Source: Albifimbria verrucaria (taxonomy: Eukaryota; Ascomycota; Sordariomycetes; Hypocreales; Stachybotryaceae). From it: a DNA stretch of 64,000 nt. The DNA is taken from the NCBI GenBank assembly GCA_020081605.1, contig JAHREC010000011.1:5022001-5086000 (forward strand). Reading direction: 5' to 3'. The notes beneath the pieces were generated by a model. It ran no database searches and was not told the origin of the DNA. It saw nothing but the letters and a program-made list of their open reading frames with translations. Position numbers and translations under genes: made by a program. Below are positions 3,712 to 63,658 of the stretch, one piece after another (within the stretch, counting starts at the first letter, position 1; each line of letters starts with the position of its first letter).

Positions 3712-5062
3712 ATGAAACCATCTGCCGTCTTCACCATAGCCTATACGGCATCCGGCATCCAGCAAGGCCTTTGCTATCCCGGCATGGGAAGAACCGTCAA
3801 GGAAGTTGAGCTTGCCGCCCGTGATAAGCATAGTGGCTCTCTATCTGAAGAGCTCATTGGTGACCTTGCCACACTCCCAAGCAACAAGCTCACCAGTACC
3901 GGCCGGGCTATCAAGGGAATTCTCACAGGGAAGATTGATGCAGAGAGTAACGATCGATCCCTTACGCGGCCAGCTATCAACAGTGCACTGTGCAAAAGGA
4001 TACCTGCTGCGTTTGGCAATATATCTCTGCGGATATGGAAGCTATGTTCCGTGGTGAATCTGGCCGTTGCACTGAACTCGCCCGCCAGGCTGTGCGCATT
4101 GGCTTCCATGATGCTGGCACATGGTCTAAATCGAGTGGCGGCGGCGGCGCTGATGGCTCTATTATTCTAGCAGGCGAGATGGCTCGCTCTGATAACATCG
4201 GAATGGCAGATATTGTCGCCAAACATCAGGAATTATATACCAAGTATCATGATCAGATGGGCTTTGCCTCCGTTACCTATGCCGATCTTATTCAGGTCGG
4301 CGCTAAGGTCGCTACCGTTGTCTGCCCGCTTGGTCCTCGCATCAAGACTTATGTTGGTCGTAAGGATAGCAGTCAGCCAAACCCGGAGGGTAAGCTACCA
4401 GGCGCCTTCGATGATGCCGAGTCACTTATTGCTCTCTTCAACGATAAGACTATTACTCCACGTGGTCTTGTTGCCTTGCTTGGTGCCCATACTACCTCCC
4501 AGCAAGTCGCTGTAAACGTTTCTCGAAGCGGCGATCCTCAAGATAGTACGCCTGGTGTGTGGGATATGCTCTACTATCGTGAGACGCTTGGCACAGTTGA
4601 GGCTCCTGATCGTGTCTTCAGATTTCAGAGCGACCTAAACCTGGCTAGCCACCCGGAAACTAAGCCCGTTTTCCAGGAATTTGCTAAACCTGGTAATCAT
4701 GCTCAGCACGATTGGAACGAGGTAAGCATAATGCCCTTCAGCTAAATACTCTCGTAGCCATTATTGACACAGTGCCTTCATAGGATTATGCCCGCGAGTA
4801 CGTTCGCCTCAGCTTACTAGGTGTCAACAACATCAACTCTCTGACCGACTGTACGAAGGTGCTTCCTCGCGCCACCACTTCGTTCAACAACAAGGATCAG
4901 AGCAAGATTAATAAATGGCTGAAGAGTTTCGACTGGAGCTCTATTTCCAAGAAGATTTCTGATCTTCTGCTGAGTGGAAATGAAATCACTGTTCCTGAGC
5001 AGTCCATTCCAACCAAATCACCAAAGCCTTCAGACCCGAGGCCTCCCAGCGCCCGGCAATAA
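3712..5062 (+). CDS. Secreted class II haem peroxidase (AA2, ligninase-like)
   Basis: About 429 residues. The start at 3712 gives a short hydrophobic signal segment ending near a CYPGMG motif seen at the mature start of ascomycete AA2 enzymes. Conserved features follow: DTCCVWQYIS (first disulphide region), RIGFHDAGTW with the distal Arg and His, GGGGADGSI (distal calcium site), ATVVCPLGPRI, and ALLGAHTTSQQ with the proximal haem-ligand His. The expected reaction is H2O2-dependent oxidation of phenolic substrates outside the cell. Exons are 3712-4721 and 4784-5062, with a clean 62-nt GT-AG intron. The frame changes near the CCC at 3959-3961. No GT-AG intron fits there, and one extra base gives a continuous family-like protein (1,290 nt including stop). 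The Ser/Pro-rich tail after about residue 400 is probably a flexible extension. Assignment to AA2 is secure; whether it acts on lignin or Mn is not decided. Confidence 0.88.
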
Positions 5063-5719
5063 AAGTTCTCGCGCTCCCAATAGTTTAAGGGTATATAAAT
5101 ACTATTTTCAGAGTACACAAGCCTAGACTCTGGTCGTCGTTTAATTTATCGCTAGTTGGGGACACATTGAAGACTTTCGGAAACACTACCTTTTCGGATT
5201 GACTCTTCTCATTCCTTAACTGTATGTCTATATATATATGTATATATTAATTAATCTTACTATCATACTTGGAAGTCAGAGAAGCAACATGTTGTGGATA
5301 ATTCTATTGTATATGAAAACATATGCCTATCAATATTTTCTGCTAAATCTCAAAGTGTCCTTGATTGAATTATGCTCGTATTCGATCTCTTGAGGCAACT
5401 GGCCGGTTTTGCACTTTGGTGCACCAGATATGTGCATAAAGCCCTTCCTCAGCTCAAGTCACAGTTTGTCCCTCTCTTCTTCCGCCGCTACAAATAGTTG
5501 CACAACCTGTTATGCGCGAATTTCATAGCCTATATAGATACACATCGCATCGAGTCACCCGGAAAGCCTTTGTCTTCCTTAAATGTGATAGCTGGAATGC
5601 CGAAATTGGCATTATTATTTGGTGGAAAGTTCCGGCTCTGCAAACGATCGTCTAGTGCGGAATAAACTTGTTATTCATTCAATTGAACGTAGCAATCTTC
5701 GTATCATTTTATATATTGC
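5063..5719. other. Intergenic region between convergent genes
   Basis: The peroxidase ends at 5062 and the minus-strand beta-helix gene ends at 5720, so this is 3'-flanking DNA for both. A TA-rich run at about 5229-5256 (tatatatatatg and similar) is the only low-complexity feature. I see no gene. Confidence 0.6.
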
Positions 5720-62184: not shown

Positions 62185-63658
62185 ATGAAGGGACTCATTC
62201 TTTCTTCTGCTCTTATCGTCGGGTCCATGGCCCAAGCCGGCCCCTATGCGCGCTGTGGTGGCAGGGGCTGGACCGGCGAGACGACATGTGTATCTGGATA
62301 TACTTGCGTTGCACAAAATGAGTGGTACAGCCAGTGTGTTGCCGGCCCAGCCAACGTCGCTAGCGCTGTTGCGCAGCACGCGACTACTTTGAGAACATCA
62401 ACCAGGAAGAGCTGCAAGTCGACCACGGTCCATGCCAGTGCCACTCAAACGCATAAATCCACCACAGCGGCCGCTGTCAAGCCGACTGCTTCTTCTCTTA
62501 TGAGTGTCAAGTCCTCCAACAAGCCTATCAACACTCAACCCACACGGCCAACTACCATTCCAGCTGCTAGCAGTCAAAACCATGCCATTTCACTGTCCAA
62601 CGCGGCTACATCCACCGTAGCTGTGGCTCCCGCTACTTCTACAGCATCAAAGCCTGCTGTCGTCACCTCTGGCTCCACAAGCTCTGGCAAGTCGGGTAAG
62701 TTCAAGTGGTTTGGTATCAACCAGTCCGGCGCCGAGTTTGGAGAGGGTAATCTCCCAGGTATTCTTGATAAGGACTACACCTTCCCGGACCCAGCCAAGA
62801 TCGATGTAAGACGAAAGATTTGTTGATGAGAGAGAAGATGGGCACTGACATAACCTAGATTTTGATCAAGGAGGGCTATAACACATTCCGTCTTAGCTTT
62901 CGCATGGAACGTGTTGCCCCGATGGTCTGACTGGAAAATTTAACGCCGACTACCTCTCGAAGCTGAAGAATATCGCAAATCACATCACCTCCGCTGGTGC
63001 CAGTGTTGCCCTGGACCCTCATAATTACGGCCGTTTCTCCGGAAACGTAATCACTGACACGGCCGCCTTCAAGACCTTTTTCACCAACTTTGCCAACGAG
63101 TTCAAGTCCAATGACAAGGTCATCTTCGACACCAACAACGAGTACAACTCTATGGATCAGGATCTTGTCCTGAAGCTGAATCAAGCTGCCATTGATGGTA
63201 TTCGCAGTACTGGAGCGAAAAACTGGATCTGGGCTGAGGGTAACTCCTGGAGCGGCGCCCACAGCTGGACCAGCGTTAACGACAACATGAAAGGTCTGAC
63301 TGACCCTCTCAACAAAACTGTCTACGAAATGCACCAGTACCTTGACAGTGACTCAAGTGGCACATCTGAGACCTGTACTTCGTCGATCATTGGCGTCGAA
63401 CGCGTCAAGGACGCGACCGAGTGGCTTCGGACCAACAAGAAGGTCGGTATGCTTGGCGAATTCGCCGGCGGCGCCAACGAGCTGTGCAAGGAGGCAGTTA
63501 CCGGCCTTCTCGATTACCTCCAGGAGAACAGCGATGTATGGATGGGAGCAAGCTGGTGGGCAGCCGGTCCCTGGTGGGGCTCGTATATGTACAGCTTCGA
63601 GCCGGAAACAGGTACCGGCTACAAGTACTACAATGAGATTCTGAAGACTTATCAATAA
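62185..63658 (+). CDS. GH5 endo-beta-1,4-glucanase with N-terminal CBM1
   Basis: Exons 62185-62805 and 62859-63658 (53-nt GT-AG intron). One base restored in CCCC 62917-62920 gives 1,422 nt, or 473 residues. I chose the ATG at 62185 (caccatgaag context) over an in-frame Met at 62167. The signal peptide MKGLILSSALIVGSMAQA precedes a CBM1 cellulose-binding module (GPYARCGGRGWTG then TCVSGYTCVAQNEWYSQC). A Ser/Thr/Lys/Pro linker of about 100 residues follows. The GH5 domain starts at FKWFGINQSGAEFG. Its acid/base Glu is in DTNNEYN and its nucleophile Glu in VGMLGEFAGG. HNYGRF and WSGAHSW are also typical of subfamily 5 (EG2-like). The enzyme cleaves cellulose internally outside the cell and pairs logically with the AA9 gene. 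Confidence 0.92.

What the first reader, a model, noticed from the sequence alone, without database searches (positions are those of the whole stretch)
3712..63658. A uniform pattern of missing bases breaks 18 of 20 genes
I count about 33 reading-frame changes in about 30 kb of recognised coding sequence. About 29 are explained by one missing base, usually in a run of two or more identical bases (for example 8550-8552, 15229-15230, 19492-19494, 33162-33166, 41536-41539, 58533-58536, 62917-62920). With them restored, the family motifs on both sides join and each gene's exon total becomes divisible by three. Conserved enzymes such as GH67, GH78 and GH5 are hit as often as dispensable ones. This looks like uncorrected single-molecule sequencing error rather than biology. 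Anyone annotating this contig would otherwise report mass pseudogenisation.
Basis: partly seen in the sequence, partly recalled or inferred. Interest (0 to 1): 0.75.

Follow-up and report, generated by a model that had tools for sequence, protein, structure and literature searches.

The report
Sequencing errors mimic broken fungal genes
Genes in this stretch of a fungal genome look broken because the assembly drops single letters, mostly at short runs of G or C; the same damage is seen in genes the cell cannot live without elsewhere in the assembly, so it is an ordinary data error and not biology.

Summary
The window lies in a 48.4 Mb, 41-contig assembly of a Stachybotryaceae-like fungus. Relatives' proteins show GH67 broken twice, GH78 and GH5 once each, all one base short. 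A codon-usage tracker and one Pfam junction add six. The totals (33 breaks, 18 of 20 genes) could not be verified.

Three results point to error. Four mostly essential families elsewhere (CCT, HSP70, proteasome, class-I tRNA synthetases) carry 18 direct frame breaks in 39.8 kb, 16 exactly one base short; three are in the only CCT-beta gene among 24 matches, 203 kb from the window. Of 11 such breaks examined, 9 hold a G/C run of four or more, 1.5 expected. An intact, nearly identical GH67 exists in another assembly.

The window's verified rate (0.62/kb) does not differ from the essential families' (0.45/kb). One argument failed its control: E. coli shows a similar deficit of long G/C runs. Verdict: artefact of a known kind; an annotation warning. 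No reads were seen.

The parts
56990..59510 (-). GH67 alpha-glucuronidase gene, no intron, spread over three frames; two frame breaks, near 58.53 and 58.72 kb, each one base short
   Evidence: Pfam GH67 N, middle and C domains in three overlapping ORFs; both breaks in 52 of 54 readable protein alignments; tracker calls at 58548 and 58733
19111..21641 (+). GH78 alpha-L-rhamnosidase gene; intron 19420-19476, then one frame break near 19.49 kb, one base short
   Evidence: 8 of 11 proteins; P0123 and P0183 use a longer intron and no break; P0121 (711 aa) covers only the intact downstream part
62185..63658 (+). CBM1-GH5 endoglucanase gene; intron 62806-62858, then one frame break near 62.92 kb, one base short
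   Evidence: 8 of 8 proteins; CBM1 and Cellulase Pfam domains in different frames
52565..54309 (-). Cytochrome P450 gene; frame change near 53.14 kb, net one base short
   Evidence: Pfam p450 positions 1-322 in one frame and 319-445 in the next, overlapping by 13 nt (arithmetic mine)
3520..5014 (+). Class-II peroxidase gene; frame break near 3.96 kb by codon usage only
   Evidence: Pfam peroxidase; tracker
8087..8771 (-). Alpha/beta-hydrolase-like gene; frame break near 8.55 kb by codon usage
   Evidence: Tracker; weak Abhydrolase_1 match, below its cut-off, ends close to the break
32551..33424 (-). Transporter-like gene; frame break near 33.17 kb by codon usage
   Evidence: Tracker; weak MFS_1 and Sugar_tr matches in two frames, both below cut-off
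40212..40810 (+). Unnamed coding stretch; frame break near 40.56 kb by codon usage only
   Evidence: Tracker
41295..42325 (-). Unnamed gene; frame break near 41.54 kb by codon usage only
   Evidence: Tracker; no Pfam match

Best explanation
The breaks are residual consensus errors of a long-read assembly. Short runs of identical bases, above all G and C, are written one base too short, which shifts the reading frame of the deposited sequence while the living genome is intact. Shown here: the breaks are almost always one base short, are enriched at G/C runs of four or more, and occur in mostly essential genes on six contigs at a rate that does not differ from the window's. Inferred: the cause is under-counting of run lengths in base calling or consensus, with little or no polishing by accurate reads; the platform is not known.
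For: 16 of 18 direct frame breaks in four mostly essential families are exactly one base short, on C4, C8, C10, C15, C36 and C41. A CCT-beta gene passes through frames 2, 1, 3 and 2, with no second copy among the 24 PF00118 loci (other loci at most 40% identical). 9 of 11 examined breaks hold a G/C run of four or more, 1.5 expected, 0 of 4000 draws reach it; 24 of 36 one-base-short tracker calls in 32 loci have one within 15 nt, 4.7 expected. Rates do not differ: 4 in 6.4 kb against 18 in 39.8 kb, p = 0.53. Intact GH67 P0001 matches at 836 of 838 aligned codons. Passages of PMC12007338 report the same error pattern in long-read drafts.
Against: No reads, platform record or short-read mapping were available. 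P0001 and P0121 differ from the window at 2 and 3 residues, so they are probably another isolate and do not exclude a recent loss by themselves. The tracker also makes calls one base over in the loci (7 against 36 at one cost, 15 against 47 at another). In the window the G/C enrichment is weaker (3 of 9 sites with a run of four or more, 0.5 expected), and the P450 site has no run of three or more within 12 nt. The deficit of long G/C runs is not diagnostic.
Confidence: 0.95

Rival explanations
1. Real pseudogenisation: a region of dispensable cell-wall-degrading and secondary genes near a contig end is decaying by single-base deletions.
For: The window ends 266 kb from the end of contig C8; many of its genes are of dispensable kinds; a run of identical bases is also where true slippage mutations fall (recalled).
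Against: Mostly essential families on six contigs carry the same breaks at a rate that does not differ; no decay by larger deletions or many stops was seen in the three genes aligned to relatives; outside the breaks GH67 is nearly identical to an intact copy.
Confidence: 0.03
2. Part of the reader's 33 changes are introns or gene ends misread as frame breaks.
For: 24 of 50 junctions in essential families are intron-like; at 15229 an intron is part of the better-scoring model; two GH78 relatives fit a longer intron without a break; 33 in 30 kb exceeds the essential-family rate (p = 0.003, different counting methods).
Against: GH67 has no intron and overlapping frames; GH5 keeps its break in 8 of 8 alignments that allow introns. 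This rival lowers the count and does not replace the error explanation.
Confidence: 0.6
3. Genome-wide recoding: ribosomes shift frame at short G/C runs, so the genes work as written.
For: The breaks share a direction and a sequence context.
Against: The nearly identical GH67 in another assembly needs no shift. Breaks fall at both C and G runs (read together with gene strand), and the window alone has 82 C and 84 G runs of exactly four, far more than breaks.
Confidence: 0.005

Closest known systems
Residual homopolymer deletion errors in long-read draft assemblies (e.g. Kastor paper, PMC12007338; passages read)
   Same: Deletions dominate, lie at runs of identical bases (there most often after runs of four to five), and turn many intact genes into apparent frameshifted pseudogenes (there 23.3% of genes in one draft annotated as pseudogenes, 89.2% of these frameshift only)
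   Different: There bacterial genomes with reads at hand; here a fungus with introns, no reads, and a break rate estimated from essential families
Programmed ribosomal frameshifting (recalled; e.g. Euplotes)
   Same: Many genes need a frame change to be read
   Different: Here an intact DNA-level copy of GH67 exists and runs of four G or C are mostly not at breaks
Lineage-specific pseudogene decay (recalled)
   Same: Single-base frame breaks in dispensable genes
   Different: Here mostly essential families are broken too, at a rate that does not differ

Membership tests
Long-read consensus indel error | Errors hit genes irrespective of essentiality | tested here: met
   18 direct breaks in four mostly essential families; CCT-beta broken three times
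Long-read consensus indel error | Spread over the whole assembly, not one region | tested here: met
   Breaks on six contigs; window rate does not differ
Long-read consensus indel error | One-sided direction, mainly missing bases | tested here: met
   16 of 18 one base short; tracker in loci 36 short and 7 over
Long-read consensus indel error | Located at runs of identical bases | tested here: met
   9 of 11 at G/C run of four or more, 1.5 expected; weaker in the window, 3 of 9, 0.5 expected
Long-read consensus indel error | Deficit of long runs in the sequence as a whole | tested here: inconclusive
   Deficit present, but E. coli K-12 shows a similar one
Long-read consensus indel error | Accurate reads disagree with the assembly at the sites | not testable with these tools
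   No reads at hand; an intact GH67 in another assembly is indirect support
Pseudogene decay of a local region | Essential genes elsewhere are spared | tested here: not met
Programmed frameshifting | The frame change is a fixed feature of the gene's DNA in the species | tested here: not met
   Only for GH67: P0001 is uninterrupted and nearly identical; other genes not tested

The most novel reading that the evidence does not exclude
A fungus whose nuclear genes, essential ones included, truly lack single bases at short G/C runs and are read by genome-wide programmed frameshifting or by insertion at the RNA level, in this isolate but not in the isolate behind P0001.
Probability: 0.005. Interest if true: 0.95.

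Novelty: not a real feature. Interest (0 to 1): 0.08.

Why it matters
Gene counts, pseudogene lists and enzyme inventories taken from this assembly would be wrong: the verified rate is roughly one false break per two kilobases of coding sequence. The junction test used here, DNA length against profile length between neighbouring matches of essential families, is a cheap way to recognise such an assembly without reads.

Tried and rejected
Run-length spectrum as proof of truncation: the window has 10 G/C runs of five (51 expected from a first-order Markov chain) and none longer (about 14 expected), and the fetched loci look alike; but 50 kb of E. coli K-12 has 14 against 43 and 3 against 11. Not used as evidence. 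No accurate fungal DNA was at hand as a better control.

Frame tracker: the model trained mostly on essential genes was insensitive in the window (3 calls at the lower cost, 1 at the higher) and was retrained on the window. It misses the GH78 and GH5 breaks by fitting introns, so it under-counts.

One search treated the three minus-strand loci in the wrong orientation; one search replaces it for the essential genes. One search leaves out one interval that one search had (net two bases short), and the one-base-over junction and the five tRNA-synthetase junctions were never examined for context (loci were not cut). HSP70 alignments to a paralogue were too noisy to count. In one search, pairs of matches more than 1500 bases apart or out of model order were not counted; one counted junction (C41, synthetase) has an unaligned gap of 44 bases and is the least certain.

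Non-coding test on ribosomal RNA: the genome search did not complete. Mitochondrial test: no match for PF00361, so no mitochondrial gene could be used. A whole-genome check for a second CCT-beta copy did not complete; instead the 24 PF00118 loci already held were compared locally.

Organism and assembly record: paper searches gave listings only; in what was listed nothing names this assembly. PDB searches: no match for the PapA-like gene; the GMC oxidoreductase matches in three stretches of one frame with gaps that I could not explain and was not counted. A GT-like gene at 15 kb stayed inconclusive.

Full report
What the window is. The window is C8:5022001-5086000 of an assembly of 48,410,092 bases in 41 contigs; C8 is 5.35 Mb long. 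The best named relatives of its GH67 are Stachybotrys elegans and Paramyrothecium foliicola, at 90%, so the organism is probably a member of Stachybotryaceae (inference). Contigs of several megabases suggest long reads (inference; no record seen).

Check of the observation. I wrote an aligner that compares a protein with DNA and allows introns and frame changes. GH67 (minus strand, 56990-59510) has no intron but lies in three frames. Of the 120 alignments run, output for 54 could be read (P0001-P0030 and P0097-P0120; the rest was cut). In 52 of the 54 both breaks appear, within a few bases of the same two places; P0110 and P0115 begin downstream of both or of one. GH78 has a break soon after an intron in 8 of 11 proteins tried (7 of these 8 with the 57-nt intron 19420-19476); P0123 and P0183 use a longer intron and no break, and P0121 starts downstream. 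GH5 has one break in 8 of 8. The P450 at 52.5-54.3 kb passes from one frame to the next with a net length one base short (matches, arithmetic mine). A codon-usage tracker retrained on the window makes 7 calls in 25.2 kb of called coding sequence, all one base short; two are the GH67 breaks and five are further ones. So 10 breaks are supported, all in the same direction. The totals of 33 breaks and 18 of 20 genes were not verified.

Is it biology or error? I asked instead whether genes that cannot be lost are broken too. Four families whose members are mostly essential in fungi (recalled) were searched in the whole assembly: Cpn60/TCP1, HSP70, proteasome and class-I tRNA synthetases. For neighbouring matches I compared DNA length with profile length. 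Of 50 junctions 24 are intron-like (net 47-95 nt), 8 are unclear, and 18 are direct frame breaks: 16 exactly one base short, one two short, one one over. They lie on C4, C8, C10, C15, C36 and C41. The clearest case is a CCT-beta gene on C8, 203 kb from the window. Its parts match in frames 2, 1, 3 and 2 in turn (against yeast chain 4v81_B the last three cover 114-271, 263-335 and 328-480), each step one base short and with overlaps that leave no room for an intron. Among the 24 PF00118 loci no other copy of it exists: the other loci are at most 40% identical to its pieces; a whole-genome check did not complete.

Context. Of the 16 one-base-short breaks, the DNA of 11 was held. Nine of these 11 intervals contain a G/C run of four or more, against 1.5 expected; none of 4000 random draws reached nine. 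In 32 loci around essential genes the tracker makes 36 calls one base short and 7 one base over (higher cost; 47 and 15 at the lower cost); a G/C run of four or more lies within 15 nt in 24 of the 36 (4.7 expected) and 3 of the 7 (0.9 expected). At nine window sites the enrichment is weaker: 3 with four or more (0.5 expected, 58 of 4000 draws reach it) and 7 with three or more (3.0 expected, 37 of 4000). The P450 site, which was not in that test, has no run of three or more within 12 nt.

Rate. The three window genes compared with relatives have 4 breaks in 6.4 kb (0.62 per kb, 95% interval 0.17-1.60). The four families have 18 in 39.8 kb (0.45 per kb, 0.27-0.72). The two do not differ (p = 0.53), though four breaks give little power.

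Another copy. P0001 is an uninterrupted 840-residue GH67 from a source labelled 'lgn' (I recall this as Logan, assemblies of public, mostly short-read runs; no call says so), on a contig of 10.8 kb. It is identical to the window at 836 of 838 aligned codons; the two differing residues, 591 and 750, lie far from the breaks at 263 and 326, and the GH78 copy P0121 differs at 3 of 711 residues. The source is therefore probably another isolate of the same species. An intact copy exists; alone it could not exclude a very recent loss in this strain.

Controls. On 50 kb of E. coli K-12 the tracker makes 10 calls at the lower cost and 6 at the higher; all lie within 28 nt of an annotated gene end and none inside a gene. 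The same stretch shows a deficit of long G/C runs much like the window's, so the run-length spectrum is not used as evidence.

How it most likely works. Base calling or consensus under-counts runs of identical bases, most visibly G and C; each missing base shifts the frame of the written sequence. Shown: direction, run context, and spread over essential genes and contigs. Inferred: the platform and the lack of polishing.

Known kind. The passages read of PMC12007338 describe long-read drafts whose deletion errors are most numerous after runs of four to five identical bases and where 23.3% of genes in one draft were annotated as pseudogenes, 89.2% of them frameshift only. The pattern here is of that kind. 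The finding is an annotation hazard and not biology.

Noticed in passing
62185-63658: The CBM1-GH5 gene is closest to Colletotrichum endoglucanases (87% with C. karsti over the catalytic part) and clearly further from the Stachybotryaceae in the list (61-64%): an old paralogue or a horizontally acquired gene.
   Followed up: no
19111-21641: The GH78 gene is closer to Thozetella and Neurospora proteins (70% and 66%) than to the Paramyrothecium foliicola protein listed (57%), again at odds with GH67 (90%).
   Followed up: no
45000-48400: A minus-strand gene with seven chitin-recognition (PF00187) stretches in one frame. Described only.
   Followed up: no
3500-63658: The window groups many plant-cell-wall or oxidative genes: peroxidase, GMC oxidoreductase (closest solved structures are alcohol oxidases), AA9, GH5, GH67, GH78, two P450s.
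   Followed up: no
36020-36103: A tRNA gene on the minus strand is the only Rfam match at the gathering threshold.
   Followed up: no
whole assembly G000: No match for PF00361, so mitochondrial nad genes seem absent from the assembly, or were missed.
   Followed up: no
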